Shown here: in pieces, positions 9,143 to 63,065 of the stretch
Numbering within the stretch: position 1 is the stretch's first letter
Layout: every line of letters starts with the position of its first letter
Assembly (NCBI GenBank): GCA_027603945.1
Contig: JADIIU010000072.1
Coordinates: 1 to 64,000, forward strand
Source of the DNA: Terramyces sp. JEL0728
Taxonomy: Eukaryota; Chytridiomycota; Chytridiomycetes; Rhizophydiales; Terramycetaceae
DNA length: 64,000 nucleotides
Reading direction: 5' to 3'
Notes under the pieces: model-generated
Databases searched by the model: none
What the model was told of the DNA's origin: nothing
What the model saw: only the letters and a program-made list of their open reading frames with translations
Position numbers and translations under genes: made by a program

Positions 9143-10526
9143 ATGGCTGAACAATTGGCATCTGCCGGAAAGACAGCTTCATATAAACTGCAAGCATGTT
9201 CCAACCAAGAAAAGAATATAGCTTTGAGAGCAATCTACAATCAACTGAAAAATAACAAGGAATTGATTATCCAGCAAAATAAACTGGACTTGGAATTAGC
9301 CAAACAAAAAGTCAAGGACGGAGAGTTGTCTCAGTCTCTATTCAATAGACTGGATATTGCAAAAAAATATGATTCGCTCTTACAAGGAGTATTGGATATT
9401 GAGCAATTGCAAGACCCAACAGGGCAGTTGCAATTGGCAAAGCAACTTGACGATGGGTTGGAATTGTACAGAGTGTCGTGTCCAGTTGGTGTATTATTGA
9501 TTATATTCGAAGCCAGACCCGAAGTAATTGTTCAAATATCGTGTCTAGCAATCAAATCTGGAAATTCGGTTATATTAAAAGGCGGAAAAGAGGCCAATAA
9601 TTCCAATATTTGTCTGATGGAAATGATCCAGAAGGCTTTAAATGACAGCAAAGTTATTCCTCCGGAAGCAGTTCAGCTGGTAACAACTAGGGATGACATT
9701 GCTACTCTGCTGAAACTGGATCGATATGTGGATTTGGTGATTCCTCGCGGTTCAAATGATTTGGTTAGATATGTACAAGAAAACACACGGTGCACGATTT
9801 TTAATTTAGGATTCCAGTGCTAGGACATGCTGATGGCATTTGTTCCACTTTTGTCGATGAATCTGCTGATATTTCAAAGGCTGTAAACATTGTTGTAGAT
9901 GGAAAGGTAACTGGGAATTGATTCAGACCAACTATCCAGCTGCATGCAATACTACAGAGACATTGTTGATACATTCTGCTATTTTGAATTCCCATTTGCC
10001 TGCGATTGCCAATGGATTAACGGAAAAGAACGTACTTATTAGGGCAGACGAAAAGGCATTGGAAACTTTATCCAGAACCCATTCAAAGTTTATTGGAAGC
10101 CGGATCGTCGCTGCAGTTCCTCAAGATTTCAAAACAGAATTTCTTGATTTAGAAATTGCCGTGAAAACGGTAGATTCGGTGCAGCAAGCCATTGAGCATA
10201 TCAATACGCATGGCTCTAAACATACCGACTGTATTGTATCAGAATCCAAAGCCAATGCGAGCACGTTCATGTCCTTGGTAGATGCAGCAGGCACTTATTG
10301 GAACGCATCAACAAGATTTGCTGATGGTTTTAGATACGGGTTTGGCGCCGAAATTGGGGTTTCTACCAACAAAACCCATGCCAGAGGGCCAGTGGGGTTG
10401 GAGGGATTGATGATTTACAAGTACAAGCTGTATGGCAATGGGCAGTGTGTCGGAGAATATTCTGACGGTGCGAAACAATACAAGAGAGCGGATTTAACGT
10501 TTGATCATTATAATAAACATCAATAA
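9143..10526 (+). CDS. PRO2: Gamma-glutamyl phosphate reductase (glutamate-5-semialdehyde dehydrogenase)
   Basis: The second enzyme of proline synthesis, reducing glutamyl-5-phosphate with NADPH. It has the conserved [31 protein letters not shown] and [10 protein letters not shown] segments, then the Cys-containing region after the second intron ([14 protein letters not shown]) and the C-terminal [14 protein letters not shown] block ([15 protein letters not shown]). Two 20-nt introns restore one frame: 9790-9809 (gtgcacgatttttaatttag) and 9907-9926 (gtaactgggaattgattcag). The product is about 446 residues, normal for the family. It is followed closely by a monooxygenase on the same strand. Confidence 0.95.
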
Positions 10527-10563
10527 AGTTTGTCAGTTACTGATGTGATGGCCATCTCCCAAA

Positions 10564-11739
10564 ATGACTCCTCAGGTTCAACAATTTTCAAGCATGACTA
10601 GAGATAATACAGTCTGTATTATCGGCTCAGGAGCGTCAGGATTAATTGCAGCCCACAAATTATTAAAGGCAAACATTGGATTCGATTTATTTGAGCAAAA
10701 GGACTATCTTGGTGGAGTCTGGCATTACGACGCTCAACCACTCGCAAGCGAATCGTACATCAGGGAGTATAATGGCAATGCAGAGTATATCAGCATCAAC
10801 CGCAATGAATCGAGTATTCCAAGTGCGTTATATCCGTCTCTCCATACAAATTTGCCAGCCGAGTTGATGGGTATGCGGGATTTCCCATTTGAATCAGCAG
10901 AGCAATTCCCATCTCATACAAAGGTATACGAATACTTGTTGGATTTTGCAAACAAAAAGGGAATAACTCCACATATCAAGTTCAACCACCAAGTAGAAAA
11001 TATTTCAGGAAGCCGAGTTACAGTCAATGGCACAACTAGGGAATATGATTATGTTATTGTTGCTAATGGGCACTATGCGGTTCCAAAAATACCGAATACT
11101 CCAGGATTGAGCTCATTCAAGGGGACGATTATGCATTCGCAAGAGTATAGAAACCCAATTGGCGGTAAAGTTCTGGTAGTTGGAGGATCATATTCTGGAA
11201 AAGATATAGCAAGGGAAATCCAGGATGTTGCTGGTCTGTTAGAAACCCTGTGGAGGACCAAGTGTCGGTGGTGGAAAGATTTACAGAAGACGGATTCGTT
11301 TGCAAGGAAGGAGCGTTTAAAGTGGACACCATCATCTTTGCTACTGGATACAAGTACTCGGCCCCATTTTGTGAATTCCTTGATATTAACAAAGGTAGTT
11401 GTTACTTATGCAGGCATAAACGATCTTTACTTGCATATGTTTTATAAGCCAAATCCAATGTACATGTTTTTGGGCGTACCAATGGGTGTAGTTCCTTTCC
11501 ATCTGGTTGAATACCAAGCTGAGTTATGCGTTGCTAGAATTCAAGGTTTGCGGATTGATTTCAGTGGATCTGATATGGAGCCTTTGGAAGGAAAAGCCAA
11601 GCATTGGTTTGGAGCAGACAGGGAGTTTGTATATTGTGACTATCTGGCAAGTTTGTATGGCGGGCCACTCGTACCAAACTGGAGAAAAGAGCTTCGATTA
11701 AATGCAGCAACTCTAAGAATAAAGCAGCTTGGATTCTAA
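10564..11739 (+). CDS. Flavin-containing monooxygenase, FMO family, with a frame problem
   Basis: The FAD motif GSGASGLIAAHKLL, an FMO fingerprint region (NLPAELMGMRDFPF) and the NADPH motif VLVVGGSYSGKDIA are in the first frame. The late FMO motif FATGYKYSAPF and its lead-in (VSVVERFTEDGF) lie in another frame at about 11250-11394. A 19-nt intron at 11395-11413 (gtagttgttacttatgcag) returns to the first frame for GINDLYLHMFYKPNPMYMF and the C-terminus. The first frame change, near 11225-11250, has no convincing short intron and about ten residues seem missing there. It may be a small deletion, a sequence error or a decayed gene. Expected role: NADPH-dependent oxygenation of a sulphur or nitrogen compound. 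Confidence 0.75.
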   Translation: MTPQVQQFSSMTRDNTVCIIGSGASGLIAAHKLLKANIGFDLFEQKDYLGGVWHYDAQPLASESYIREYNGNAEYISINRNESSIPSALYPSLHTNLPAELMGMRDFPFESAEQFPSHTKVYEYLLDFANKKGITPHIKFNHQVENISGSRVTVNGTTREYDYVIVANGHYAVPKIPNTPGLSSFKGTIMHSQEYRNPIGGKVLVVGGSYSGKDIAREIQDVAGLLETLWRTKCRWWKDLQKTDSFARKERLKWTPSSLLLDTSTRPHFVNSLILTKVVVTYAGINDLYLHMFYKPNPMYMFLGVPMGVVPFHLVEYQAELCVARIQGLRIDFSGSDMEPLEGKAKHWFGADREFVYCDYLASLYGGPLVPNWRKELRLNAATLRIKQLGF

Positions 11740-11833: not shown

Positions 11834-12688
11834 ATGTCCTTGACAGATTCTGAAATTAATCTAGTTATTCTGATATCCAAGGCTTGTTGTGGAGTTGGCT
11901 TGTTTGGAAATATTCTTACAATTCCATATTTTATGAATAACAAGATTAATCTAGCAACTCCAATCGGAAAGCTCACTCTAGTCCTGTGGATTACAGATTT
12001 TCATGATGCCTTTTTCAAACTGATTGCTCATACAGTGCTGTTCCCCTCACAGAGTAACAAAACGCTATGTTACATACAAGGAGTGGAGGGCACATTCTCC
12101 AGTAACGTAGATGTAACTGTTAACGGAATATTGGGATTTTGGTCGTTCTATCTATTCATAATGGGAGGAAAGAACCACATACTGGTCCGCCATCAAACCC
12201 TGCTGATTGTTGGAATATATACATGGGCGTCAGTATTAGCTATTCTCCCACTATTCTCTGGAAAGCAAAATTTGTATGGTGGTGATATTTGGTGTTGGAT
12301 CAGCCCAAATTATCCAGGATATCAGTTTTACACAAGCATACTCTGGATGTGGATTGTAATAGTTTTCAATACTCTTTCGTTTTTCTATACTTTGTACCGT
12401 ATCCGAAGATGTAATACTGGACCGCAAATAGTCATGAGGTTATTTTCATATCTCATTGTATTCCTTGTCGTGTGGATTCCATCGAATTTGTACAGAGTTT
12501 CGGAGTATCTGTATGGGTCTTCACCGTTCGGATTGGTAGTGTTGGAATTTTCAATGATTCCGCTACGTGGTATGCTGCACTATCTTAGTCTTGCAGCAGT
12601 GTTAAACTTAAACTGTGATTCGCATCTAGAACATATTTCGCAGGTAAATCCCAAAACTGAAGAGACAGACTTACTTTATACTTTATAA
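11834..12688 (+). CDS. Seven-helix receptor, class E-like (copy G)
   Basis: A 284-residue member with a short tail lacking the SFxxxxK motif. Core marks are IWCWI, MRLFSYLIVFLVVWIP and PLRGMLHYLSL. The third inner loop is Arg/Cys-rich (YRIRRCNTGPQ). A variant hexamer, TCACGT (11822-11827), ends 6 bases before the ATG, in the same place as the CGCGT elements of its paralogs. It is intronless, on the same strand as PRO2 and the FMO, and opens the second receptor cluster. Confidence 0.85.
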   Translation: MSLTDSEINLVILISKACCGVGLFGNILTIPYFMNNKINLATPIGKLTLVLWITDFHDAFFKLIAHTVLFPSQSNKTLCYIQGVEGTFSSNVDVTVNGILGFWSFYLFIMGGKNHILVRHQTLLIVGIYTWASVLAILPLFSGKQNLYGGDIWCWISPNYPGYQFYTSILWMWIVIVFNTLSFFYTLYRIRRCNTGPQIVMRLFSYLIVFLVVWIPSNLYRVSEYLYGSSPFGLVVLEFSMIPLRGMLHYLSLAAVLNLNCDSHLEHISQVNPKTEETDLLYTL

Positions 12689-12920
12689 TAAATTTCCATC
12701 TTTGGCTGATTAGGTTGATCACGTTACTTGATTGTTATTAGCGAGCAGGGCGGGCAAATTCTCCGTGAGTGTCAATAACGATAAATAGTTCCAAGTAACC
12801 GGTGGAATGGTAGTTACCGGAAATCTATCGTCCTTTGTCCGCTTCTCCCTATCGAATCATCGAATAAGCGAAAATCTAGAAGGAGGCGGGTAAATACCCA
12901 TTCATGTGGAAATATTCCTA

Positions 12921-12926
12921 TCGCGT
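12921..12926 (+). promoter_or_regulatory. TCGCGT element before receptor ATG
   Basis: TCGCGT ends 7 bases before the ATG at 12934. It falls inside the reading frame if the upstream ATG at 12904 were used, one reason to prefer 12934 as the start. Confidence 0.45.
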
Positions 12927-12933
12927 TTCTTTC

Positions 12934-13833
12934 ATGTCTTTAGATGACTATCCAGGCGACTTGATTGCAGTCTCTTCAAAAACTGCAAGTGCTATTGGTT
13001 TCTTTGGAGCTGTCGTGACAATACCAATGTTTGTTTCAGGACAACTCCGGCTTTCAACACCACTTGGCAAATTGACTTTTATTCTATGGATTGCAGACTT
13101 TCAAGACTCGTTGTTTAGACTGCTTGCTAATACACCTGTACTTCCCATACAAACGAACGAATCTGTATGTTATTTTCAAGCAATTATGATTACATTCGCA
13201 ACAATGTGTAGCGTGACTGGAAATGCGATAGTCGCTTTCTGGGCATTCTATTTGTTTTATATTGGAGGTAGAAACGAAATATTAATCAAAAACCAAACTG
13301 CGATGATTATTATGCTTTACACCTTTTGTGCTGTACTGGCTCTGTATCCACTATTTATCGGACCACATGTTTATATTGGAACTATTTGGTGTGCTTTGAA
13401 ATCACAGTACAGTGTTTATTCATTCTACACATCACTACTATGGATTTGGATCGTGACTGCCTTCAATATAGCGAGCCTAGGCTTTACGTGGTACCATATT
13501 CAAAGTCGGAGGTTGGGTTCTTTGATTATCGTCCGTCTGTTTTCCTATCTGGTAGTCTATATTCTTGTTTGGACTCCGGCGGTGTGTTTCCGAATATCTC
13601 TGTACTTTTCCAACGATGTGCCATTTGCGATATCATTTTCATACTATATTGCGGTTCCGCTCAGGGGGATGTTGCACTATATCTGCTTGATAATTGGGCA
13701 AAATATTAAATACAGCAATTCAACAACAGACGTTGTTCTTCCCGGTGGATTATCAATAATCGAAGATGACGATCCGTATAGTAACTCTTTTCAAGACGAG
13801 ACTAAAGATTATGAAAGGGATGCGAATATTTGA
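12934..13833 (+). CDS. Seven-helix receptor, class E-like (copy H)
   Basis: I start at 12934 (MSLDDYPGDL), which aligns with paralogous N-termini. An ATG at 12904 would add ten residues and swallow the TCGCGT element. Outer loop 2 reads IWCAL, so the second Trp of W-C-W is lost, as in copy I (IWCVL). Helices 6-7 keep IVRLFSYLVVYILVWTP and PLRGMLHYICL. The tail has LPGGLS and then SNSFQDETKD (SFxxxxK). With copy I it forms a closely related sister pair. Confidence 0.85.
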   Translation: MSLDDYPGDLIAVSSKTASAIGFFGAVVTIPMFVSGQLRLSTPLGKLTFILWIADFQDSLFRLLANTPVLPIQTNESVCYFQAIMITFATMCSVTGNAIVAFWAFYLFYIGGRNEILIKNQTAMIIMLYTFCAVLALYPLFIGPHVYIGTIWCALKSQYSVYSFYTSLLWIWIVTAFNIASLGFTWYHIQSRRLGSLIIVRLFSYLVVYILVWTPAVCFRISLYFSNDVPFAISFSYYIAVPLRGMLHYICLIIGQNIKYSNSTTDVVLPGGLSIIEDDDPYSNSFQDETKDYERDANI

Positions 13834-16984: not shown

Positions 16985-18518
16985 TTATTCCTTGTGTTTG
17001 ACTGCTTCAGACTCCAATTCACCGTTCTTGATGACAGTCTTGAATTGCTCAGAAACAGGTTTTTCGGTGAATTCTCCATTTTCAGAAGGAATCAAAATAT
17101 TCATTTCAGATGATTTTGCACTCAAAATTTCGATATCAAGACATTCTTTGGATAGGTACAATTGCAAGCCGTCAGTCTTGTCAACAACCGTAGTTGGGCA
17201 CTTGCCGGTAATTTGAATTTGAAGACGTTGGCAATTCACTGCATCCAAAGTGGCAACAATGTTTTCAGCTAAAAGGCCAACCTTTTTACAATTATCTGAG
17301 TTAGGTTCGAAATACCAATAGAAATGGCATTGACTTTTCCCAAAACCTTGATGGTGCTGTTTTGGCAGTTGTAGATATAAACCGTATGCCTGATTTCGGT
17401 TTGGTCAATGACAATCTCATTGTTTCCGTTGTAGTTTTCGACCACCCACTTGTTACCTTCAAGAGCCAACTTTGGTGGTCCTTTTGGAGCGCTGTTTCCT
17501 TTGACGGCAGAAGTTACTATATCAAGGATAAAATACCTGGCTTTTCAACGGCTTTGACAATGCTGGTTGCACGTAACTCGGGGTTTTTGTGGGTCATTTC
17601 AGATTTGTCAACCTTGCGAAGGCCAGTTGTTCCTCTGCTTAGTTCGCCCAATAAATCCGCTGGGTTTGGAGCAGCCGGCTTTGAAGGAGTAGAAAAGGAT
17701 TCTAATTGCGCAGCTGTTGGAGCTGGTGGTGGTGGAGGTGCTCCGCCAGATTGTGCAGCCGCAGCTCCGCCAATATCTATATATCAAAGATCTTTTACTG
17801 GCTGATTTAGCATCGCCTCCTTTTGGGTTCCAAGCTAGTCCAGTAGTATGCCATTGCTTGACATATGCTTGCAACTCGACCAATACACCTAAATAACTGT
17901 TAACCCATTCAACGTGGGTTGGGTGTCTCGTTAAAAACCATTTACTTGTCCTTGTTGTCCTTAATTACACGGTTTGCATAGAATTGGGCAGCGTCTTTCA
18001 TTTCTCCAATGTACGGTGCTGGAGTTGGAGCAACCACAACCCACCCAAGTGCTGGGATACCGTCAGCAATAGCAGACAAGTGGAAAAACAAAGGCGATGG
18101 TCTGTTCTTGTCCTTGATTTCTGTAATAGCCATAATACCTTTCTGCAAAGGTGCGATGATTTCTTGAAGAGTTTTATCATCTGGCTTTTTCGAAACTGCT
18201 GCAATAGCAACTGCACGTTAATTTCACAGTACCAATCTTTCTAACAGCTGCAAATGCGTGTAAAACTTCCGTAACCTATAATTATCCACTAAATACTTGT
18301 TTTTCAACTAATTCACCGATTGGTTTTGATTGAGCAGCGAATGATTGTAGAGAGCCAGTGATTATTGCATCCAAAGCAGAAACGGCAGGTGAAGAGGCTG
18401 CTGCTGCCGACGCATTTCCAGTTGGTGGAGCTCCTGCTTTTCCTCCATTTGCAATAACATCCAATCTTGCTGCTGTGGCTTCCAGTCTTTCAATTAAGCT
18501 CGCGAGTCTTGACTCCAT
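16985..18518 (-). CDS. SRV2: Adenylyl cyclase-associated protein (CAP/Srv2)
   Basis: CAP recycles cofilin-bound ADP-actin and, in yeast, links Ras to adenylyl cyclase. The N-terminal helix (RLASLIERLEATAARLDVIA), the helical domain with WVVVAPTPAPYIGEMKDA and HPTHVEWVNSYLG, a proline run (GGAPPPPPAPT) and the C-terminal beta-helix (WVVENYNGN, IDNCKKVGLLAENIV, CPTTVVDKTDGLQLYLS) appear in the right order. Six introns of 19-22 nt are needed (plus-strand positions 18276-18296, 18211-18232, 17927-17945, 17777-17798, 17517-17536, 17296-17315). The product is about 470 residues, usual for CAP. Its 3' end faces the FAD gene with a 20-base gap. Confidence 0.95.
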
Positions 18519-21199: not shown

Positions 21200-21611
21200 A
21201 TGACCATCCAACATGTTTCAACTGATCAAGCGCCAAAAGCCATTGGCCCATATTCACAAGCAGTAATCGCAAATGGGTTCGTATTCACTGCAGGGCAAAT
21301 CGCATTCATCCCAGAAACAATGGAATTGTTAAATGGAGATGTGCAGGCTCAAACCAAACAAGCTCTGACCAATCTTAAAGCAGTATTAGCAAAAGCAGGC
21401 ACTTCGTTTGACCACATTGTAAAGACAACCGTATTCTTAAAAGTAATTAAGGTTAATGTAGGACATGAATGACTTTGCAAAGATGAATGAAACTTATGCG
21501 GAAATGATGGGTACTGCTCGACCAGCTAGATCCGCCGTTGAAGTTGCCAGGTTACCAAGAGACTGTCTTGTAGAAATTGAATGTGTTGCGCTCATTCCAT
21601 CAAAATTATAA
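21200..21611 (+). CDS. HMF1: RidA/YjgF/Hmf1-family enamine/imine deaminase
   Basis: A small enzyme of about 130 residues that hydrolyses reactive 2-aminoacrylate-type enamines. Visible family motifs are [39 protein letters not shown], the substrate-binding Arg in [11 protein letters not shown] and the terminal VEIECVAL. One 19-nt intron (21443-21461, gtaattaaggttaatgtag) lies between FLK and DMNDF. The stop codon is separated by only 7 bases from the stop of the convergent coiled-coil gene. Confidence 0.95.
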
Positions 21612-24321: not shown

Positions 24322-25700
24322 ATGACTCGCTCAAGACAATTTTTAAAGCCTCAAGATCTTGATTTCAAATCTCAAATGGAAATTGATTGGCCGGACCGTT
24401 GGCAGAACATACACCACTATTTAAAACGAGCTGGACCTTTTTCAGTAGAAGGATTTCAACCTGGTCCTGAGGTAATTGAATATCTCCACGAATGTTCAAT
24501 CTGTATCATTGGCGCTGGAGGTTTAGGCTGCGAATTAATTAAAAATCTTGCAATGACTGGGTTCAAAGATATTCATATTATTGATATGGACACCATTGAT
24601 GTTTCAAACCTCAACAGACAGTTTTTGTTCCGACAAAAAGATGTTGGAAAGAGTAAAGCTGAAGTTGCCGCCGAATTCATAATGAATAGAGTTCCTGGAT
24701 GTAAAGTTACACCATATTTCGGAAAAATTCAAGATAAAGACGAAGAATATTATTCTCAGTTTACATTGGTTATTTGCGGTTTGGATTCGGTTGAAGCACG
24801 GAGATGGATGAATGCAATGGTAATAGGGATGTATGACGAAGAAGATCCATCTACTTTGAAGCCGCTGATTGATGGGGGTACAGAAGGATTCAAAGGACAA
24901 GCCAGAGTGATATTACCAAGGATGACGGCGTGCTACGAATGCTCTCTAGAAATGCAAACAAAACCAAGGACCTTTCCCATGTGTAACTACTTTTTAAATG
25001 GATAGGCACGATTGCAAACACTCCAAGACTACCAGAGCATTGTATTCAATTTGCTTCTCAAGTTCAGTGGCCAGAAGAATTTAAAGACAAGAAATTGGAT
25101 GGTAATACTGATTAATCTAGGCGACGACCCCGAGCATATCCAATGGTGTCTTCGTAAAGCAAAGGAAAGAGCCGATCAGTTTGGAATACGCGGCATCACT
25201 TATTCGCTTACCCAAGGGGTAGTGAAGAATATTATTCCTGCAATTGCTTCTACCAATGCTATTATTGCTGCGTCTTGTGCGAATGAGGCATATAAACTGG
25301 TAACAGGATGTGCTGGATCGATGCAAAACTATATGATGTATGTCGGGGATGCTGGAATTTATACGTATACCTTTGCTTTGGAGCGCAAAGATGAATGCCC
25401 AGTGTGTGGGTCAGCTTTACTCCAAGTTACTATGGACAAGAATCAAACTCTACAGGATTTACTGGATCTGCTTTTAGAAAAGAACGAAGTGTAAGCTTGA
25501 ATTAATCTAGCCAATTGAAACGGCCTTCTCTGCGCACTTCTAGGAAATCATTGTACATGCAAGCACCACCACAACTGGAAGAAATGACTCGCAAAAATTT
25601 AGGGTTGGAGCTTCACGAGCTGATTGAATCAGAGGAAGAAATTAATGTGACTGATATGAACCTTCCAATTTCGTTGCGGTTGCATGTCAAGCTTAAATAA
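24322..25700 (+). CDS. UBA3: NEDD8-activating enzyme E1 catalytic subunit
   Basis: It activates the ubiquitin-like protein NEDD8/Rub1 with ATP and passes it to Ubc12. The adenylation motif [20 protein letters not shown], the [17 protein letters not shown] segment, zinc ligands (CYECS, CPVCGS) and the active-site Cys in [16 protein letters not shown] are present. The C-terminal ubiquitin-fold region has [17 protein letters not shown] and [10 protein letters not shown]. Introns lie at 24983-25005 (23 nt, splitting the catalytic Cys codon), 25102-25120 and 25491-25510. The product is about 440 residues, as expected. Only 35 bases separate it from the next gene. Confidence 0.96.
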
Positions 25701-27203: not shown

Positions 27204-28946
27204 ATGGCTCTCAAAATTCCAAAGTCTGGTTTAACAACCATGTTGAAAGATGGCTACAAGGTACTCTTAATTAACGCCAGCATAGCCAAGGTTTAGAAGA
27301 AGCTGTTTATAGAAATATTGCAGCAACAAAAGAATTGACTGAAATCACTAGAACATCTTTAGGACCTAATGGTGTTTGATCTCTAATCTAGGCCGCAACA
27401 AGATGGTGATCAACCATTTGGAAAAACTTTTTGTTACTTCAGATGCTGCAACCATTATGAGAGAGTTGGAAGTCGTTCATCCAGCCGCTAAATTATTGGT
27501 AATGGCATCTCAGCAACAAGAAGCTGAAGTAAGTGATTTTAATGTAGATGGGCGATTCCACCAATTTTGTAGTTGTATTCGCCGGGCAATTGTTGCAAGA
27601 AGCAGAGTATTTACTCCGCATGGGTCTTCATGCTGCAGAAGTTATTGAAGGATATCGGTTTGCCTTGAAAAAAGCACTTAGTTTAGCCCCAGGTAACTGA
27701 TCTATAAAAATCTAGAATTAGCAATTGATGCAATCGCTGATCTACATGATCCTGAACAACTAAGAAAGGTTGTCGTATCTTCAATTGGTGCCAAACAGTA
27801 TGGCTACGAAGATTTATTATCTGATTTGGTAATTAAAGCCGCAACTGAAGTCATGCCAAAAAACACAAAGAACTTCAATGTCGATGCTATTCGTGTAGTA
27901 AAGATTTTAGGTGCATCTATTCACGACTCTCAAGTAGTAAAAGGGATGGTATTTGCCCGTTCTCCAGACAGTACTCTTCAAAAAGCTGCCAAAGCCAAAG
28001 TTGCAATTTTCATGTCTGGAATCGATGTCGCATTAACTGAAACTAAAGGAACTGTATTAATTAAAAATGCAAACGAAATGTTGGATTTTTCAAAAGGCGA
28101 AGAAAAGAATTTGGAAGCTGCTATCAAAGAATTAGCAGAAGCTGGAGTCAAAGTAGTTGTATCTGGATCTGGTATTGGTGAATTAGCACTCCACTTTTTA
28201 AACCGCTACAACATGGTTGTGGTTAAAGTATTGTCCAAATTCGATATTCGTCGTTTATGCCGTGTTACTGGAGCTACCGCTTTGACTAGATTTGGAGTAC
28301 CGATGGCTGAAGAAATGGGCTTCTGTGATGTAGTCGAAGCTGTTGAAATTGGTAGTGATAGATGCACTGTGTTCAGACAAGACTCTGAAACTACCAAGAC
28401 TGCTACTATTGTATTACGCGGTGGTACTCAAAACAGCATTGATGATTTGGAACGTGCTGTTGATGACGGTGTCAATGTAATCAAGGCAGTCTCTAAAGAC
28501 AACCGTCTTTTAGCTGGTGCCGGTGCTTTTGAAATCGAGCTTGCTCGCTTGCTCCACAGTGTAGCTGAAACTACTCCTGGACTAAACCAATACGCAATCC
28601 AAAAATTCGCAGAAGCGCTTGAAGTAATTCCAAGAACTTTGGCCGAGAATGCTGGTTTAGATGTAATTTTTATTAACAACAGAGCACCGAAGTAATTTCC
28701 AAGCTGTACGCTTCTCACCAACAAGGAGAAAAGGAAATGGGAATAAATATCGAGAGCGAAGATAACGGGATCTTGGACACCAAGGAAAAGCATATCTTTG
28801 ACATATTCTCTGTCAAGGAATTTGCAATTAAACAAGCAACTAATACTGCTCTTACTATCTTATCTGTCGATCAAATTATAATGAGTAAAGCTGCTGGTGG
28901 ACCTAAAGTGCCAAAGCAACAAGGTAATTGGGACGAAGATGATTAA
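27204..28946 (+). CDS. CCT8: Cytosolic chaperonin CCT/TRiC subunit theta
   Basis: One of the eight subunits that fold actin and tubulin. It opens with LKDGYKHSQGLEEAVYRN and has LTEITRTSLGPNG, MGDSTNFVVVFAGQLL (ATP hydrolysis loop region), KFDIRRLCRVTGA and the C-terminal VDQIIMSKAAGGPK typical of theta. Five introns (27261-27280, 27372-27391, 27529-27547, 27693-27715, 28663-28682; 19-23 nt) join the frames. The product is about 546 residues, normal for CCT. The ATP-binding LGPNG and GDSTN segments lie in separate exons. Confidence 0.96.
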
Positions 28947-29085: not shown

Positions 29086-29983
29086 ATGGAAATACAATTA
29101 CAAAGAGAATTACAAGTCAACCAACTGCGTTCATTCCATGTCTCCACTGGCCTCAAAACAACCCTATATTTTGACAGCATTGTCTATGAACATGTTGATT
29201 TCTCAATTTTCAAATCACTCTACAACAAAGAAGTCATCTTGCCGTTCAACCTCGATATTGCAATTCAGCGTGGATACAAAATCAAGGAAATCAGCCAGTA
29301 AGTGTATTTAAATAGGGTTTCTGTCACTGTGTATTCTGATGAAATCGTACCGCATTTGATTGATTACGAAATACAAAGGGATTATTTGGATTTAAAGTAT
29401 CTCCTAAGTGCAGGTAAACAACCGTATAACAGCAGGCAACCTTGGCCGTAACTTAGGTTTCCACATTTTGTGCTATATAAAAAAGGACAATTTCAATTAC
29501 GTTGTATACATACAGCACGATACAGAAATCAGGCTTTTGATAGTCACAAAAAAGTTGTTGAGCCAAGTACTTGGTATCTACGAATATTCCTTGCTTGATT
29601 ACTGTCGGTATTATCCAACAAAGACAGAAATTAGCGATACTGGTAGCTTGACAAGTGAAGCAGGATTATCCTCATTTGACGAGCCAGAAACACCTGTATT
29701 TGACAGAGAAACACCCTCAAAAATTAGATCTTTTGCGAAACCAGTATTTGAATTACCTTCAAAGGTATCATACGAGTCTGCGTATCAATTGGAAGCAACA
29801 AAGGCTTTCCGCACCTCTTTTGAAGAGTATATGCTCCAAGGGGGAAAGATTGTTAACAAGGTGCCAGTAAGTATTTTTAATTAGACTAAACGAGAAAATG
29901 TATTTTCAGTCAGAGTTAAGCTGGATGGCAAAGTGAAATTCTTTCCTCAAGTAAGAGAAGAAACCCTTGGCAAGTACGAATAA
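29086..29983 (+). CDS. Unrecognised protein, four exons
   Basis: A start at MEIQLQRELQ and introns at 29298-29315 (gtaagtgtatttaaatag, 18 nt), 29414 (19 or 22 nt) and 29867-29884 (gtaagtatttttaattag, 18 nt) give about 280 residues. The N-terminal half looks globular, with alternating hydrophobic residues (FHVSTGLKTTLYFDSIVYEH, VTVYSDEIVPHLIDYEI). The middle is Ser/Thr/Pro-rich and likely disordered (SDTGSLTSEAGLSSFDEPE). The C-terminus is basic. I see no signal peptide, membrane segment or catalytic motif and do not recognise a family. Confidence 0.65.
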
Positions 29984-30035: not shown

Positions 30036-32099
30036 TTAAATATCGATACTCTTTTCTTGACATTCCATAAAGAAATCAGTCTCATACTGAGTTGGCCCAT
30101 CTATTCTCAACGGCTTGCGTTTTCCCAATACAACCTTGGGTACAACGCGGAACCCTTCTGGTGGAAACGAGCTGTATTCTCTTAGAACCTTGTTGCTCTT
30201 GATTGATTCGCCTCGTAGAATCTTTTTGGTAAATTCTCTAACAGTTGGGTGGTAGTGTCTGGATAATTCAACAAGTTCCCATAGACTGGTAGCAAATGGG
30301 TTGCACATGTTGGGATCATCCAAGAATGGTTGGTATATACCTGTTGCCACTTTGCCCTCTTCATCAATTAAACATTCTAATCTTGGGAACCGCTAATATT
30401 AATTATTCTTACAGTCAAAGCGCTTTTGATTGTGTTCAAACATGCCAATGCAGAGTTTACTGGAGATGCTGCAGCCAATGTTCCAAGTCTCTTTATGAAA
30501 CTGCATACACGCTCAATAGGTACCTGCGTTAAAACTGATTACTTCTCTATTCTTTTTCAGCATTGATTCAATACCACGCAATAATAGTTCAACTTCGCTT
30601 CGATCAACCACCTCGATTTGCCCAGGCAGATTGAATAATCTACTGATTTGAGTGTATAGAGAAGTGTAAAAATCTCGCAAATCGACTTTAAGTGCACCGC
30701 CAAGAGAGTCTAGCAAATCAAATGCGGCAATAATACAGTGCAGCGCCGTCTTTGACGAATGCGCATCTTTTCCCTCCAAGTAATCCTTGTACTGGGTATT
30801 ACTGATCCCCTTTAACAGATTAAGTAGATCCTGGAAAAAGTCTACATTGATTAAATGTGTGTATTTTGACAGACCTTCCAGGACAGTTGGGACTAGTTGT
30901 GAAGTTGGTTTGTTTTTCAAAATACGGAAATAAGTTAAAAACACGTATTTGAGCGTTTCTGACTGGCGAGACTGCAGCTCTTGTTTATCGTATACAGCTT
31001 CGGCTTCTTTGACTTGTTCTTGAACTTCTTTTAGATGTTTTCCAATTTTCTTCATTTTTTTGCTTAGATGAACTGCTTCCCTCTTTCTCTTCTTTGAGTC
31101 TGTATCTGTACCAGTCACTAGATTGAAATTAAGAGATAGGAAAGTTTCTAGAACGGCAGGCTTGGCTGAATTTGTATTAATGTGGTCAGCTAGCAGTTTA
31201 ACCAGTTCCAAAGACGCTTCCCCGCTCGCATCATTCTTGAATACATCGACAAATGCTAAAGTAATAAGATTGGTTTCAACTTTCAACTGCTTTACCAAAG
31301 CCGTCATGATATTCAATCTAAAGTTGAAATGAGTTTGCGTGGACAATAGCTGACACAACGAAACAACAGACGAATGTTGTAGTTCTGGAGTTTTTAGTGA
31401 CTTTTCCAATAATTTCAAGTATTCTTGATAGTTGGAAAGTAAACCTTCTTCAAACTGCCGCAACTCTTTGACTTGCTTTGATACCTTGACATTTTCATCT
31501 TCGCCAGTTTTTCTGATTCTATATCCAGGAATAATATCCTTGAAAACCATCAACATTGTTAGAATGGCGAAGTTGGTGGCTTTGTGATCTGTGGTGTACT
31601 TGAAAAGATTCTTTAGCAGGGGATAATTCTTTTCTGGATTCTCTAGAATTGCAGTTGCGATATCTGCCAATTCTTCTTTTACGACTGCTAATGATTTTTT
31701 GTTTGATTTTGCAGGATTTTGCTTTTCCCCGCTTGTGCTGGCAGCTGGTTTCTTTTCCACCTGCGTTTCCTTTTTATTTGTCTTTTCAACTGTAGCAAAT
31801 TGTGAAATCTGTTCAGGAACAGGCAGGTTGCCCTCAGATTCAGGCTCTGATTCCTCCTTTACCCTGACAACTCTGCCATTAACTTTGATAGGTAGTTTCG
31901 TATCTTCCTTCATTTCTTTTCTAGGCTTGAGTTCATATTCTTCAAACTCTGCATCTTCCAAAAAGGAAGCTCCTTTTCCAAATTCAGAAAATAATTCTAA
32001 ATCCTGGTCGTCCAATTCAAAATCTTCTTCAACTGCTTGCGGCCTAGCTATTTGGCTTCCTGGTTTTAATCCTCGCCTCCAGCTATTCTTTTTTCCCAT
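30036..32099 (-). CDS. NOC3: Nucleolar complex protein 3 (Noc3)
   Basis: Noc3 works with Noc2 in 60S pre-ribosome export and, in yeast, in replication initiation. I start at MGKKNSWRRG. The acidic N-terminus is followed by the family core: AILENPEKNYPLLKNLFKY, VFKDIIPGYRIRK and, in the CBF/Mak21-like C-terminal part, ALHCIIAAFDLLD and HPTVREFTKKIL. Two introns are needed, 30524-30542 (19 nt) and 30393-30412 (20 nt). The product is about 674 residues. The start codon is only 18 bases from the divergent ELP5 start, across an A-rich stretch. Confidence 0.93.
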
Positions 32100-40047: not shown

Positions 40048-43000
40048 TTAACCATGGGGTTTTCTTTTAGTAGTATCATACAAATCAACGACTTTCTGTC
40101 CAAATTGCTGGTCGTTTTGCGAAAATGCGTATCCGTAATTCATTTCTTTCATTCTTTGGATTTTGATCACTGTAGAGTGGAACCATTGGGCTTGAAGACT
40201 ATAATCCGGTATGTTATGTTTTTGAATTTCTTGCACAATGTGATATGACTGGGGGAAAAAGAAACGTTTGTAACTAGGTTAAACATAGGATACAATTTCC
40301 ACGCGAAATCTCTCAGGTTGATTGCAAATGGCAGGAATATCAGGGAAAGAAAGAACGTGTACGAACTAAAGATTGCTTGATTTACATTAAATAGCTCCTT
40401 GGAAATGAATTTAGGCCCAATAAAACTGAGAGCATACTAAGTTAGATTATAATTACAATCGGCAGTAAAATATAGTAGGCAATTAAAGACCCAAATATGG
40501 AAAATATGGTCCATCCGTTGAACAAGTCAATGATCAAACAGTGCTTGATCATTACCGTTGTTAAAGTAGTAGCATACACAAATATTCCAAACACCCAATT
40601 GTCTGACACCAGCCCGTTTGCTAGAATGTCGCCGTCTCCTAGAATGTAAACCCAGGCATAGAAGAGCAACAAAGAGTGGAAAATGGCATTGATGATCCAT
40701 AGAATAAAGGTGTAGTGGTTGTAAAATCGATCGTCTTGCCCATTTCTGTACATTCTAGGATATTTGAACAAAACTTGGGCACTGATATACTGGTCAAAAA
40801 TACCAATGGCGATAGGAGGTAATAAAGTCCAGACCACATTGTACGAAGATACTGCCGACCATGTTTCAAACAACGTCTATAATTAGAAATAACTTGCCAT
40901 TCCAGAGAAAAAGTTACTAAAAGTGAACCAGCACTGGATCAAATACAGCGCCAGGTTTTTGTAGAATGAAATTAAAATGACTTTGGAAATGCGAGAATAT
41001 GCCCATCCACCATGGACTAATAGCAGTTTGCGAAGATAGCGGAACTGTCCAATGGCAAAGTCGGCTGATCTGGCAGCCTGCAAACCTTCCTGTCCTGAAA
41101 TACCAACACCAACGTTTGCCGATTGAATCATGCTGACATCATTGGCTCCGTCGCCGATTGCCAATGTAACTGCTCCGGCGACATTGTTCTTTACCAACTT
41201 GACAACCAATGCTTTTTGTAAAGGCGAAACACGACAACAAATAACTGATTTACATAAAAGTGCGACTTCCAAGAAAATATCAGATACCTCTGGGTCTAGA
41301 GCGTGTGTTAAAGTAGTGCCGTCGATAACCAATGCCATTGGTTCACATCCAACCCCATAGTCCTTGTCAAATTTTGCATTTTTTGCATTTATGCCCCGCC
41401 AAAACTGTTTCCATTTCGACGGCCTTTTATATTCAACAGTCATTCTCTTCTTTGCATCCATCAATGCGCTACTCAAAAAGGCTTTGGTTTCTTCCTTGGT
41501 TTCCTTGTTACAAACAATCATTTCCATTTGTGGATTGAGTAGTCTGCAAGAGATCCCGATATTGATAGCAGTGTCTTGGCGATCCCCAGTTAATACCCAC
41601 ATTCGGATTCCTGCTTCGAGTAAGTTGTAGATGGTTTCTGGTACACCATCCTGAAGTTTATCTTCAATTGCAGTAGCGCCAACGAGCTGAAGGTCTTTTT
41701 CGATTAATTCTGCAGCTTTATCGAGCATTTCTTCCCTGTCGGTGATTGATGTTGCTGCTTTTTCGTATGCCGACTGCCATTCGCGATACTCTGTCTCTTC
41801 AATATCACGGTAGGCAAATACAAGAGTTCTGAGGCCTTCATTTGCATATTCCTCCATATGCTGCATCGTAGCATCTTTGAACTCACAATCAGAGACCAGT
41901 CTTTCCAAAATCACTGTTTCGGCCCCTTTAATCATTAGTTTAACCTTTCCATCAGACCCCCGAACAATCAGAGACATTCGTTTTCTGGTAGAGTTGAATT
42001 CATTGACTTGCAAGATCTGGTATTCTTTATCGACCCCATCGGCATTCATTGTAACTGACTTTGGCCTCCTTGTCTGGTATTAACTAATATTACATGAAAT
42101 TCGTATCCTAGAGTCCTGGCACCATCAACTAGAGCAACCTCATCAGGAGAAGAAGCTTGGTAGATAATTTTCTCAGAGTGTTCATCTTTTTCAGGAATAA
42201 CTGTGTGACAAACTGAGAGCAGCGTAAGAAACTCTTTTAATACGGCGAATTCAGCACTAGCTTTGTGCTCTTCAAAGTGTTTTTTGTTATAATAGCCCTG
42301 TGTTTAAGACAAAGTACCTTTTCAGTTTGAGTTGGCCATTCAGTTAGTGTGTAAGCATTCCCACCAACGGTGAATTTCTTGAACTCCATGATATTTCTCG
42401 TCAGTGTACCAGTTTTGTCACTGAAAATAAAATCCACCTGCCCTAATTCTTCCACCAGGTTTGTGGTTTTAGCAGAAGCAGGCATGTCTTTTTCATCATA
42501 GTACATATCCAAATCCATATTAATGTACGTCCCAAGCACTAGTTTGACAAATTCCAAACTGATCATCAAACTGAGGGGAATCAAGTTGTTGAACAGAATC
42601 ATAAAGGTTAGGACGTGCTCAAAGAACTGCATTGGAGTCGTTGGATTAAATCCCTTGACTGGGGACAAGATTTCACTGACAAAGTTTGTTGATTTTTCCA
42701 TGTACAATTCCCCAACAGCGCACCCTACTGCCAAGAGAATCAAGAATAAAAATAGCAAAACAACCTGGGAATTTACCATTGATTCTACTTTGGTGGATTT
42801 GATTGGTGTAGAAGTGGAATTTTTCATGAGTTTGGTTTCGTGGCCAGTGAAAACAACCAATCCGTATGCCCACTTTGTGTTTCTTAATTGCGCACCCTGA
42901 TGTTATCTCGTAATTACCCTTAGAAGCAATTGATTTGGTCCAATTGCCAACTCCTGGCCGTTGAACCTTAGTGTTGCTTTGAATGTGTACAGGGAGTTGT

Positions 43001-43634
43001 TTGGCAATTCGGTTTCGATACTGCCTTGAAACTTTGCTACGGCTTCAGGAGAGAGTAGATTCCCAGTTTCTGGGATCCCCTGTCTGATTTTCAGATTCGT
43101 TTCTCCATCCAAATTTGATGTTTCAATATAACACAGCGAGTCTGGCTCTGACGTTGAGATTATAACGATATCTCCCGGAAAGTTGTGTCCGTTTTCAATC
43201 CTGACAATTTCCCCCACTTTGACATCCTTCCACAAAGTTTCCACAAATTTATCACCACGGAGTACTTTGCATTTACTGTTATTTACCGCACTATCCTGTG
43301 CATGTCTCTTCCTATCTTCCCACATTTCCTTGAAAGCTGTAATAATGAAAATACCAGCCAAAGGACCAGCAGTAGCGATTTTCGAAGTTGGCGATAAATC
43401 CCCAATCGGCTGGATACATGATATGAATAAAAAGAACATGTTGGCGTATTTTGAAAAGAATTCAAGTGTGAATTTTGGTATGAATGATACTACAGTGTAT
43501 TTTCCCGTTGAAATTGCGTTGTGCAGATAATTTCCTTGGCCGTTGATTTCTACCGTTCGACTGCCATCTGGGACGTACGTTTGGACAATTTGCTCCTGGG
43601 CAAGGCCTAAAGTTACAAGTAGGGATTTGCCCAT
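40048..43634 (-). CDS. P4-type phospholipid flippase ATPase (Drs2/Dnf family)
   Basis: A membrane ATPase moving phospholipids to the cytosolic leaflet. Start at [10 protein letters not shown]. The actuator has DGET ([10 protein letters not shown]); the phosphorylation motif is [11 protein letters not shown], followed by [10 protein letters not shown], the nucleotide-binding [18 protein letters not shown] and [20 protein letters not shown]. The C-terminal membrane half ends [18 protein letters not shown]. Ten helices fit the family; length is about 1150 residues. Six introns of 20-21 nt are needed; that at 40877-40897 has a GC donor (gcaagt). No Cdc50 partner gene is seen in the window. Confidence 0.96.
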
Positions 43635-48376: not shown

Positions 48377-48424
48377 GGCCGACTGTTTTGCAAAAAAATA
48401 CTGGGCTGAAAAATGCAAACTTGG

Positions 48425-54399: not shown

Positions 54400-54653
54400 A
54401 TGTTTGACTTTGCACGCTGCTGGAATCATGTCCAGACGAAAACGCTCAATAATGAATGTGCGGTAAAATGGAAAGAAAACAGCCTTGGACAAATCTTTTG
54501 GCTCCAAGTTTACAACCAATTACACAGATTAATCGGCACCTCAAGGTAAAAGGACATTGTATTAATGAGAAGGTTGTTGAGGTTTCCAAAGCACACAGTG
54601 TGTTTCAAAAAGTGCGAATTGATTTACCACCAATATCGAAACTTGGCAATTGA
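54400..54653 (+). CDS. Possible small gene, structure not settled
   Basis: From ATG 54400 the frame reads MFDFARCWNHVQTKTL, then two putative introns (20 nt, gtaaaatggaaagaaaacag, and 24 nt ending attaatgag) lead to APWTNLLAPSLQPITQINRH and VVEVSKAHSVFQKVRIDLPP. The product would be about 69 residues, helical. An upstream stretch (from about 54290) is open in another frame (AFKHNGIEKKIIKIPLLQDL) and may be a 5' exon, but I cannot join it with a credible intron. No family recognised. It is on the strand opposite to the transcription-factor array. Confidence 0.4.
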
Positions 54654-54680
54654 GACAATCAATAAAAGTAATATAATATT

Positions 54681-60620: not shown

Positions 60621-60830
60621 TTATTTGCGCAATAATATATATTTAAATAGATTTTAGCCAAGATTACGTTTGCATGCTGTGATGTAATGATATCACGGTA
60701 TCTACTGCTTTGAAGGGTTTCTTGCCGACGGTAGATCAAATACAAATGCCGAATGCTAGACTTTGCTTTGAATATTAACGAGCGACTGCAATACATTGTG
60801 AGGGAAAACCAACTCGAACCAACAAATTTA

Positions 60831-63065
60831 TTACCATTCAAGCCCAGAGTAATCAGAGCAGCCAAGAACAACTTCTCTTTGTTTGGTTCTAATGGCCGCA
60901 CACGAATCTTCTTCATATTCAATATTATCGGGGTTTATGCCAGATTCTTGGCGACTGCTTTCAGAATAGAATTGCTTGTACCAACGCCTGAATTCCTTGA
61001 TTTGTTTATCATCACGAATCAAAATAGGAGATCCTAAAGTTAGTTGAGTGTACTTGGATATTCCTTGTGGTTCCAGATTTCAATATCTTCGCCAAATGCA
61101 AATTTTGCTTCTCGAAGAATGTACCATACCAGCAGACTTGGAACGCTTTTTTCAGCAAAGTAAGTATCGTGCATAGTTGATTCAAGTGCTTTTGAAGGAG
61201 TGAATGTCTTTACCATTAAAATAACTAGATTAGTTTAAAAATACATCCGAATGGAGTGTTAAATTGAAAGTACATTACTGAAGATGGTCCGCACATAGTA
61301 ACAGTGGTGTACACTTTGTCAGGAAGACAAGGTTTAGTATCATCAAACACAGAGTACACCTTTGCCCAGTTTGTAAATTTCAATACGTGTGGTTTGTCTT
61401 CATATTTCACTGATTCGATTGTATGCTTGATGTAGGTAAATAATGACAAAATAGGGAAATGTAGTTTGCTGTGAACAACATCAAAGTGCGTCCAGTCGGC
61501 ACTGTTTTCAGCAACGTCTTGCATGTGTAAATATACTTTACGCTCAGACTCACCAAAACAAGCCATCTTGTTTTGATCAAACTGCGGGAATCTAAACAAA
61601 TCGTAGAGGGGAGGACGGTTTTCTGCATCGTACCATACATAAATATTTCCCATGTATTCAAATGAAGGCCAGCTCTTTACCCGTGCATTGTCCGGCACTC
61701 TGGCTCCAGGGATTTGCACACATTTACCATCTTGTCCAAATCTCCATTCGTGGAATGGACATTCCAGAGTATCGCCAACTACACGACCACCAACGGCCAT
61801 ATTTGCACCCAAGTGAGGACAGATAGCATCTGTTACTGAGATTTGCTCGTTATCTTCGCCTCTGAATACAGCAAACTTTCTTCCCAAACAAATTTTTTGA
61901 AGTACTTGGCCAGGTTGAACTTCCTTGCTTGAAAACAATCTGTACCATCCATTTGGGTATGGCGGAGGGAACTTCCATGCACGGTGTTTCCTCGATCCAT
62001 TCTTTTCGTCAACGTCTTTTTCAACTACAGGAGCATTCATTTTTGCAATGATATATCCAACCGCCATACCCCCAGCTAGTGTCACTACGTTTCCAAAAGC
62101 ACCAAGCCTGATATTTTCCCATTGCGACGCTAAAGCAGAGAATAAGAATATTGCCAACGAAGGCACCACATAAGCAAATAGTTGGTGGGATGGGAAACAA
62201 ACAAACAACGACAACGAAATAAGAGAAATTACAAGGATTTCGTTTGGTGGCATAATTCCTAAATGTTCTGAAAGCATTTGCCAGAACACACGGAGACCAA
62301 GAATGCCAATAGCAGAGATCGAGTACAGCGATTTAAGACGGCTTTCTTGATTCTTTTTAGCTTGCAATCGTCTGATGAAATCCTTGGTTGCAAACATACC
62401 AATGGAAAATGCCAAGACGTGAGAAATGGTGAGGTTCCAAGCTTCGCCAAAAGACATGCCAGTATCTGAAGGGATGATGAAGATGTGGAAACAGTACTTG
62501 AACCATAGCAAACAACCTAGTGTCAAAGATAATCACCAGTCAAAAATTCAATGTGGAAGATAAAGTCAAACAGGACATGCAAAAAGTCCTTTCCATCTTT
62601 TCCCAACTTTGGAGCCTTGGCAGCAATTCTGTCGACTGATCTAAGTATGCCAAAATATGCTGTGATCCCAAACAATAGGCACAGTGTGTGTGAAAACCGT
62701 GTATTGAAAAAGAATCCTTGAATACCAGCCGCTACATTTTCAGGAACGACAATAGATCCAAAAATAAAGGTATCTGGATATCTGAACAGTGTTGAAGGGC
62801 TGGATTTTAGTTCCACGTTAAAGTATTTCAAGAGTTGCTGCAAGTACTGATACCCTAGTGCTTGATAATACGCGGTCGTTGAGGCAGAGATACATGTATG
62901 ATAGCAAAACAAGAGGAATTGGGACCAGACCAAGTACGACAGAACTTGTGATCTGGTTTTTTGTTGAAGTGTTTGTTTTAGTTGGATGATCCCCATCACA
63001 GCGTTGTATACGAATGTTGCCGTGAACAGACCAACTGGAATGTAAACCAGTACCGTCGATAACAT
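60831..63065 (-). CDS. Rieske-type oxygenase fused to an N-terminal multi-pass membrane domain
   Basis: The C-terminal half is a Rieske non-haem iron oxygenase of the DAF-36/Neverland/KshA type. Rieske ligands appear in CPHLGANMAVGG and CPFHEWRFG; the mononuclear iron region is ENSADWTHFDVVHSKLHF; the end FRRWYKQFYS is typical of cholesterol 7-desaturases. Before it lie about 300 residues with some eight to ten hydrophobic segments (SHTLCLLFGITAYFGILRS, ILVISLISLSLFVCF). Three 20-nt introns, including gtgattatctttgacactag, which joins the membrane parts, link all frames. I start at MLSTVLVYIPVG; an ATG at 63102 with a mini-exon is possible. The product is about 725 residues. Confidence 0.85.

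What the first reader, a model, noticed from the sequence alone, without database searches (positions are those of the whole stretch)
9143..63065. Genome-wide use of 17-25 nt spliceosomal introns
In about 29 genes, frame and conserved protein sequence force removal of nearly eighty introns. Almost all are 17-25 nt, with a strong mode at 19-21. Examples: gtaagtatttttaattag (18 nt, 29867), gtaattaaggttaatgtag (19 nt, 21443), gtaatactgattaatctag (19 nt, 25102). The pattern is GTA-N-(T/C)TAA(T/C)-N(1-6)-AG, so the branch adenine is only about 3-8 nt from the acceptor. Such sizes are known from chlorarachniophyte nucleomorphs and Stentor. A fungal-type genome with so many, in genes as conserved as CCT8, UBA3 and CAP, would be striking and implies an unusual intron-definition mode.
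Basis: partly seen in the sequence, partly recalled or inferred. Interest (0 to 1): 0.88.

Follow-up and report, generated by a model that had tools for sequence, protein, structure and literature searches.

The report
Twenty-nucleotide introns throughout a chytrid genome
In a chytrid, a flagellated microscopic fungus, protein genes are interrupted by introns of about 20 letters with an almost fixed layout, among the shortest known, although several of the usual splicing helper proteins are still encoded.

Summary
The window lies in a 15.0 Mb chytrid genome; CCT8 as spliced here is 100% identical over 546 aa to the public record of Terramyces sp. JEL0728 (Rhizophydiales), so those annotators removed the same five introns. 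An ab initio splice search on 264 kb (window plus 20 stretches of 10 kb), given only GT..AG and a flat 12-40 nt range, put 202 of 264 introns at 18-23 nt, mode 20; decoy dinucleotides put 23-44 of 147-242 there. With learned signals: 225 against 3-14. No class of 24-400 nt rises above decoys. Without a branch term, 137 of 202 carry YTRAY with the adenine at nt 14-16, 12 expected. The distances donor-to-branch and branch-to-acceptor (5-6 nt) are each nearly fixed and vary independently. Canonical U2 snRNA, U2AF65, U2AF35, SF1 and Slu7 are encoded; U1, U6, RED and RBM17 were not found, which proves nothing. Such introns are known from nucleomorphs, heterotrich ciliates and mikrocytids; an intron-rich fungus that keeps a strong anchored branch site is a new variant. 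No RNA data were available.

The parts
27204..28946 (+). CCT8 (T-complex subunit theta): six exons, five introns of 20, 20, 19, 23, 20 nt at 27261, 27372, 27529, 27693, 28663
   Evidence: Spliced protein 100% identical over 546 aa to the named record of Terramyces sp. JEL0728 (sequence); aligns to PDB 4b2t chain Q over 1-545 with two one-residue gaps, neither at a junction; models
24322..25700 (+). UBA3 (NEDD8-activating enzyme catalytic subunit) with introns of 23, 19, 20 nt at 24983, 25102, 25491
   Evidence: Spliced protein matches PDB 1tt5 chain B, 502 bits, residues 19-431, with no gap at the three junctions; models
16985..18518 (-). CAP (adenylyl cyclase-associated protein) with six introns of 21, 22, 19, 22, 20, 20 nt
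   Evidence: Spliced protein matches PDB 9q7o chain W over residues 6-458, 371 bits; some junctions lie in poorly conserved stretches; intron sequences
21200..21611 (+). RidA-like gene with one 19-nt intron at 21443 (name from reading the sequence, no family search)
   Evidence: Gene model
9143..10526 (+). Gamma-glutamyl phosphate reductase-like gene, two 20-nt introns at 9790 and 9907 (name from reading the sequence)
   Evidence: Gene model
29086..29983 (+). Gene of unknown name with introns of 18, 19 and 18 nt at 29298, 29414, 29867; two of the three 18-nt introns in the set of 310
   Evidence: Gene model, (one search had a 130-nt jump in place of the second)
30036..32099 (-). NOC3-like gene, introns of 19 nt at 30524 and 20 nt at 30393 (name from reading the sequence)
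   Evidence: Gene model
40048..43634 (-). P4-type phospholipid-transporting ATPase gene, introns of 21, 20, 20 nt (42897, 42298, 42074) and 20, 20 nt (40437, 40274); one search split it into two models, joined here by homology
   Evidence: Homologues; intron sequences
40877..40897 (-). GC-AG intron of 21 nt, GCAAGTTATTTCTAATTATAG, branch A at nt 15, tail 6; missed by the GT-AG models
   Evidence: Sequence; homologues P0132 and P0138 read FSG-MTLFETW across the junction, P0121 and P0122 break after FSGM
60831..62996 (-). Rieske oxygenase gene (KshA_C plus Rieske domains) with three 20-nt introns at 62517, 61225, 61034
   Evidence: Gene model; Pfam on the spliced protein

Best explanation
These are U2-type spliceosomal introns miniaturised to about 18-23 nt throughout the nuclear genome of a rhizophydialean chytrid (Terramyces sp. 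JEL0728 or an isolate identical in the gene compared). Shown by sequence: GT donor (one GC donor seen) with consensus GTAATT, branch motif YTRAY, mostly TAG or CAG acceptor; branch adenine at intron nt 14-15; 5-6 nt from it to the last G; the first AG after the branch is the acceptor. Inferred: the intron is recognised as a whole unit by its own signals plus two independent spacings (donor to branch, branch to acceptor), with no room for a polypyrimidine tract. U2 pairs with the branch site; SF1 and the U2AF heterodimer are held mainly by protein contacts and by U2AF35 on the AG, not by U2AF65 reading pyrimidines; the 3' splice site is the first AG. Splicing then gives a lariat loop of about 14 nt and a tail of 5-6 nt. 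The stated confidence is for the shown part; for the tethering step I would say about 0.55.
For: Length peak without length or branch assumptions against decoys. Branch motif not put in by the search: 137 of 202 with YTRAY adenine at nt 14-16, 12.2 expected after shuffling interiors. A position SD 0.71 nt, tail SD 0.76 nt, correlation 0.006, n = 141; first AG after A is the acceptor in 138 of 141. A named public protein is identical to my splice of CCT8. PDB alignments of spliced CCT8, UBA3 and CAP. Among the 30 best proteins of the first CCT8 search, 27 hold the segment before intron 5; six unnamed ones (P0001-P0005, P0019) end 2-8 residues after the junction with tails that begin with V, as GTN would give, and one named partial record (P0014) ends at it; the other 20 continue into the next exon. 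Three of the six tails (VFNY, VHYF, VYFF) end after four residues, where the TAA of a branch site with its A at nt 15 would lie (inference). U2 snRNA with GUAGUA; U2AF65 at 334 bits, over the cut-off of 310, with four introns of 19-20 nt of its own; SF1-HH and KH; U2AF35 exons at 51-69% identity; Slu7 289 bits.
Against: No RNA or peptide data were available. U1 was not found. U6 gave only two matches of 27 bits in what looks like a repeated element, below the cut-off of 44; the pattern ACAGAGANNATTAGC gave 16 hits, all with one mismatch, against 26 for the reversed control, and the one of 16 that was fetched has no Rfam match. RED_N and RBM17 were not found. 65 of 202 introns lack strict YTRAY at the expected place. 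The +5 position is T in 59% and G in 14%, not the usual G that canonical U1 and U6 favour (recalled). In the final run decoys still give 4-35 calls against 310, so some calls are false. The tethering step is inference; the SF1 model lacks its 3' part.
Confidence: 0.9

Rival explanations
1. Same introns, rebuilt early machinery: another UHM protein (RBM17/SPF45, or the RBM39 homologue found here) replaces U2AF on them, as SPF45 does on human short introns with truncated pyrimidine tracts. This competes with the inferred tethering step, not with the shown part.
For: SPF45 replaces U2AF65 on truncated tracts in human cells (PMC8363638, passages seen). An RBM39-type protein with RS-rich part, RRMs and RBM39 linker is encoded at C19, with six introns of 19-21 nt in its own gene. 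A tail of 5-6 nt leaves no space for a pyrimidine tract.
Confidence: 0.25
2. The apparent introns are an artefact of frameshifts in a draft assembly or of over-fitted gene models.
For: Assembly in 231 contigs; gene models are ab initio, and decoy dinucleotides are also called at a low rate (4-35 against 310).
Against: Decoys give 3-14 against 225 and 23-44 against 202 without any signal model; a named public annotation is letter-identical for a five-intron gene; solved homologues run through the junctions; six unnamed relatives break at the same junction.
Confidence: 0.02
3. The segments are not spliced by a spliceosome but removed from DNA (as in ciliates), skipped in translation or otherwise bypassed.
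For: Uniform short length resembles some eliminated DNA elements (recalled, not tested).
Against: GT/GC..AG ends, branch motif at a fixed place and retained splicing factors; I recall no DNA elimination of this kind in chytrids.
Confidence: 0.01
4. A second class of longer introns exists and the 20-mers are only the part that this search can see.
For: 16, 16 and 18 jumps at 24-60, 61-150 and 151-400 nt were still called with real signals; two 25-nt candidates look plausible.
Against: Decoys call more in each of these bins (21-39, 26-47, 34-47). Introns over 400 nt, UTR introns and introns with other signals were not tested.
Confidence: 0.12

Closest known systems
Chlorarachniophyte nucleomorph introns (Bigelowiella, Lotharella, Amorphochlora)
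   Same: GT-AG introns of mostly 18-23 nt throughout the genome, commonest size 18, 19 or 20 nt by species (PMC4494063, passages seen).
   Different: Relict endosymbiont nuclei with 793-1,028 introns; no branch-point signature and donors largely GT(A) in B. natans (PMC2483917, passages seen). Here 310 called introns in 264 kb of a fungal nucleus and a strong anchored branch site.
Stentor coeruleus
   Same: Branch adenine at a nearly fixed position and a 3' tail of 5 nt; U2 GUAGUA kept (PMC9505925, parts 1 and 2 of 6 read).
   Different: 15-16 nt, branch at nt 10-11 without strong consensus, 18% of genes with introns. Here 18-23 nt, branch at nt 14-15 with YTRAY, 104 of 140 predicted genes with at least one intron.
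Mikrocytid introns (Mikrocytos mackini, P. canceri)
   Same: Very uniform, tiny, conserved in sequence (PMC10245619, passages seen).
   Different: 16-17 nt, 224 introns in the parasite M. mackini with a strongly reduced spliceosome. Here the early factors that were found include U2AF65, U2AF35, SF1 and Slu7.
Paramecium ultra-short introns
   Same: Intron-rich genome with only short introns (about 25 nt, PMC5014332; median about 24 nt in P. bursaria, PMC12862383; passages seen).
   Different: Slightly longer and almost no branch motif (ctrayw in 3.55% of introns, PMC2483917). Here CTRAY is in 63 of 202 and YTRAY in 145 of 202; the motifs are one base shorter, so the comparison is rough.
Yarrowia, Giardia, Trichomonas anchored branch sites
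   Same: Branch site at a fixed short distance from the AG (PMC2483917, passages).
   Different: Treated there as intron-poor genomes; Yarrowia introns are long (median 204 nt). Here the donor-to-branch spacing is fixed too.

Membership tests
U2-type (major) spliceosomal introns | GT-AG (or GC-AG) boundaries with frame restored in conserved proteins | tested here: met
U2-type (major) spliceosomal introns | Branch motif complementary to U2 GUAGUA, and that U2 encoded | tested here: met
   YTRAY in 137 of 202 at nt 14-16; U2 140 bits with GUAGUA
U2-type (major) spliceosomal introns | Complete set of U1, U2, U4, U5, U6 snRNAs | tested here: inconclusive
   U2 found; U1 and U6 not found; U4 and U5 not searched
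U2-type (major) spliceosomal introns | Excision shown in RNA | not testable with these tools
   No reads held; indirect only: identical public protein, whose evidence base is unknown to me
Genome-wide ultrashort-intron lineages (nucleomorph, heterotrich, mikrocytid type) | Nearly all introns in a narrow band under about 25 nt | tested here: met
   225 of 282 at 18-23 nt with length free from 11 to 150, the rest not above decoys; no excess up to 400 nt. Sample 264 kb of 15.0 Mb
Genome-wide ultrashort-intron lineages (nucleomorph, heterotrich, mikrocytid type) | Weak branch and donor consensus, as stated for three short-intron lineages in PMC2483917 (not a rule for mikrocytids) | tested here: not met
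   137 of 202 with YTRAY at nt 14-16 against 12 expected
SPF45/RBM17-type U2AF-independent short introns | RBM17 with G-patch and UHM encoded | tested here: inconclusive
Smu1/RED-dependent short introns | RED and Smu1 encoded | tested here: inconclusive
   RED_N: no candidate, and nothing rang in the controls either; Smu1 not searched

The most novel reading that the evidence does not exclude
An intron-rich fungus whose spliceosome has converged on about 20-nt introns while keeping U2AF, SF1, Slu7 and a strong branch site: recognition depends on two independent spacing rules (14-15 nt and 5-6 nt) and no pyrimidine tract, so assembly must bypass the roughly 50-nt minimum between donor and branch known from human complexes. 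The trait would be shared by other Rhizophydiales and be partly mis-annotated there.
Probability: 0.45. Interest if true: 0.8.

Novelty: new variant of a known kind. Interest (0 to 1): 0.62.

Why it matters
The shortest known introns sit in organisms that are hard to work with: relict nuclei, giant ciliates and intracellular parasites. A chytrid that bears an isolate number (JEL0728; I recall these as culture numbers) with the same trait would be a practical system to ask how a spliceosome acts on an intron far shorter than the roughly 52 nt that the human U6 and U2 pairing regions and their gap would need (PMC6692369, passages). It also departs from the statement that short-intron lineages have degenerate signals (PMC2483917), and it warns that gene callers can break genes at such introns: six unnamed relatives of CCT8 end 2-8 residues after one junction.

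Tried and rejected
Rejected as U6: two 27-bit Rfam matches at C199 and C111; the stretch after the box does not fit the consensus, and both flanks carry the same spurious hits at the same places, so they look like copies of one repeat. The U6 pattern hit at C65 and all four exact hits to ATACTTACCTG (5' end of U1, recalled) have no Rfam match even at E 10; by eye they look like coding sequence, which I did not test. So a U1 or U6 change that might explain T at +5 could not be tested. One untested idea is an mRNA-type intron inside U6, as recalled for some fungi.

Not supported: selection against cryptic intron motifs in exons. A strict geometry motif occurs 2 times in 168 kb of spliced coding sequence, 1.7 expected after synonymous shuffling; a loose one 68 times against 79 (SD 8), antisense 73 against 90 (SD 9.5). 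The strict motif fits 136 of 310 introns, the loose one 249; but the coding set was made by a model that cuts such motifs out, so this contrast is biased upward.

Not claimed: that 21-nt (3n) introns are enriched for in-frame stops. 52 of 57 introns of length 3n and 136 of 253 others hold one, but the finder sees 3n introns mainly through their stops.

The first look at relatives pointed to Kappamyces because the length filter hid full-length records; one search corrected it to Terramyces. The Kappamyces record P0006 starts at the residue that is the first Met after intron 4 of CCT8, which fits a missed tiny intron but does not show one. In one search the reversed-sequence control was higher than the Markov control at many lengths and shows no peak at 19-20 nt (5 and 3); I judged it unsuitable because TAA is avoided in frame, and rely on the Markov control. 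In one search one model used false jumps of 70 and 14 nt in the P4-ATPase, where homologues support a 21-nt GC-AG intron; these rows stay in the counts. In some searches the search had no signal terms, but its codon table came from gene models that had used them. The iterations learned a poor branch matrix (TTTA); the matrix used later was seeded with TTAAT, which is why I rest the branch claim.

Literature: the ten searches listed no paper whose title or opening abstract concerns intron length in Rhizophydiales or Terramyces; long lists were cut (20 of 132, 25 of 62, 10 of 12), and the library holds open-licence papers only. Passages of PMC13391722 and PMC9698843 mention chytrid introns but no such lengths, and passages of PMC11649378 name no chytrid. 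I recall, and did not see, that the Terramyces, Kappamyces and Globomyces genomes come from Amses et al. 2022 (one search shows that citation only for Globomyces pollinis-pini).

Full report
WHAT IS THERE. The window is contig 72, bases 1-64000, of a genome of 15,016,339 bases in 231 contigs; the window is 38-42% GC. A search with the spliced CCT8 protein found a record of Terramyces sp. JEL0728 with 100% identity over 100% of 546 residues on a 67,274-base contig, then Globomyces at 84% (sequence). Taxonomy places it in Rhizophydiales, Chytridiomycota. So the genome is that isolate or one identical in this gene.

TEST OF THE INTRONS. I wrote a Viterbi gene finder with codon-pair scores, trained on 75 long open frames and later retrained on its own predictions. 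Data: the window plus 20 stretches of 10 kb, one from each of contigs 1-20, 264 kb in all; the eight 3-kb loci were left out. With only GT..AG and a flat range of 10-90 nt, 16 of 41 jumps fell at 19-22 nt; decoys gave 1 of 32 (CT..AC), 1 of 41 (GA..TG) and 4 of 38 (TG..GA). After learning signals with a flat range of 11-150 nt, 224 of 282 introns were 18-23 nt: 3, 61, 100, 31, 22 and 7 at 18 to 23 nt. In a rerun with the same signals the real pair gave 225 in that band; decoy dinucleotides gave 7, 14, 3, 6 and 9, and a scrambled signal model 12; at 24-150 nt the decoys had 106-148 (scrambled model 72) against 49 real. With no signal terms and a flat 12-40 nt range the real pair gave 202 of 264, the decoys 23 of 161, 23 of 147, 32 of 183, 44 of 242 and 34 of 185. 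Extending the learned model to 400 nt gave 189 at 18-23 nt (decoys 1-4) and no longer class: 16, 16 and 18 real jumps at 24-60, 61-150 and 151-400 nt, decoys 21-39, 26-47 and 34-47. Scaled by length this suggests some 17,000 introns in the genome before false calls are taken off, a rough extrapolation from 1.8% of it. Two 25-nt candidates outside that set look plausible (window 51290; L042).

HOMOLOGY. Spliced CCT8 aligns to CCT theta in PDB 4b2t over residues 1-545, 625 bits, with no gap at its five junctions. UBA3 matches 1tt5 over 19-431, 502 bits, three junctions. CAP matches 9q7o over 6-458, 371 bits, six junctions, some in poorly conserved stretches. In the first CCT8 search, six close unnamed proteins (P0001-P0005, P0019; 81-87% identity) end 2-8 residues after the intron-5 junction, each tail starting with V as GTN would give; 27 of the 30 best hold this segment, one more (P0014, a named partial record) ends at the junction, and 20 read on into the next exon, among them Kappamyces. 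Three tails have four residues, where a TAA with its last A at nt 15 would follow. In the P4-ATPase search, P0121 and P0122 break at the place of my 21-nt GC-AG intron, and P0132 and P0138 read through it as FSG-MTLFETW.

GEOMETRY. To avoid circularity I used introns found with no donor or branch term: 202 of 264 at 18-23 nt; 137 of 202 have YTRAY with A at nt 14-16, 12.2 expected after shuffling interiors. For 141 introns with a clear branch, SD of the A position is 0.71 nt, of the tail 0.76 nt, and their correlation is 0.006; the commonest pairs (A position, tail) are (14,6) 34, (14,5) 34, (15,5) 27. The first AG after the A is the acceptor in 138 of 141. From the learned set, donor +3 A 95%, +4 A 58%, +5 T 59% (G 14%), +6 T 58%; base before AG: T 71%, C 21%, A 8%. 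This learned set used donor and branch terms, so its percentages are biased up; +3 A is 178 of 202 and +5 T 105 of 202.

MACHINERY. U2 snRNA: one match at C70, 140 bits, with canonical GUGUAGUA. U2AF65 at C2, about 45 kb: 252 bits unspliced, 334 bits to TIGR01642, over its cut-off of 310, once spliced; RRM1-RRM2 and UHM match PDB U2AF65 chains; four introns of 19-20 nt in its own gene. SF1: SF1-HH 115 bits and KH, model lacks its 3' part. U2AF35: four exon matches on C4 at 51-69% identity. Slu7: 289 bits. RBM39 homologue at C19. Not found: U1, U6, RED_N, RBM17. The tool warns that nothing rang in its controls for U1 and RED, so absence is not shown. U4, U5, Smu1, Prp8 and Prp18 were not searched.

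HOW IT MOST LIKELY WORKS. Shown: fixed layout, canonical U2, early factors encoded. Inferred: intron definition by the intron alone, two spacing rules, U2AF held by protein contacts because 5-6 nt after the branch leaves no pyrimidine tract, first-AG choice for the second step. In human B complexes the donor and branch helices and the gap between them need about 52 nt (PMC6692369, passages); here donor and branch are 14-15 nt apart, so the pairing regions must be shorter or be handed over one after the other. Nuadthaisong et al. make a steric argument for Stentor (PMC9505925, abstract and parts 1-2).

COMPARISON. Narrow ultrashort introns are known: mostly 18-23 nt in chlorarachniophyte nucleomorphs, 15-16 nt in Stentor, 16-17 nt in mikrocytids, about 25 nt in Paramecium. 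Irimia and Roy state that three short-intron lineages show weak signals and no branch signature (PMC2483917, passages). This chytrid does not fit that. The ten searches named in Tried and rejected listed no paper on intron length in this group. The public protein shows that annotators already removed these introns in at least one gene, so the data are not new, but I found no description of the pattern.

VERDICT. RNA evidence is still needed.

Noticed in passing
window 64-855, 1084-1959, 2180-3061, 5178-6086, 6320-7207 (-), 7667-8692 (-), 11834-12688, 12904-13833, 14146-15045: Nine similar single-frame genes of about 260-340 aa (the first may run off the window) that look like multi-pass membrane receptors by eye; the one tested has no Pfam match. 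They appear intronless in a genome where 104 of 140 predicted genes have introns.
   Followed up: partly
window 43858-56437 (-): Array of about six genes that look related by eye; one tested has weak Fungal_trans similarity (21 bits, below the Pfam cut-off of 23). Five of them have a 19-21 nt intron, the sixth (50160-51825) a possible 25-nt one.
   Followed up: partly
window 40877-40897 (-): A 21-nt GC-AG intron with the standard branch position; GC-AG introns may be a minor class that GT-only models miss.
   Followed up: partly
G000 C199:4823-4928 and C111:34941-35045 (L040, L041): Two near-copies of an element with a weak U6-like stretch including ACAGAGA; judged a chance match.
   Followed up: partly
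   Followed up: partly
window 60831-62996 (-): Rieske oxygenase with KshA_C domain, reminiscent of animal cholesterol 7-desaturases (recalled), in a chytrid.
   Followed up: no
protein P0006 (Kappamyces sp. JEL0680): Public CCT8 record begins at the residue that is the first Met after the place of intron 4, as if a tiny intron had been missed in annotation.
   Followed up: partly
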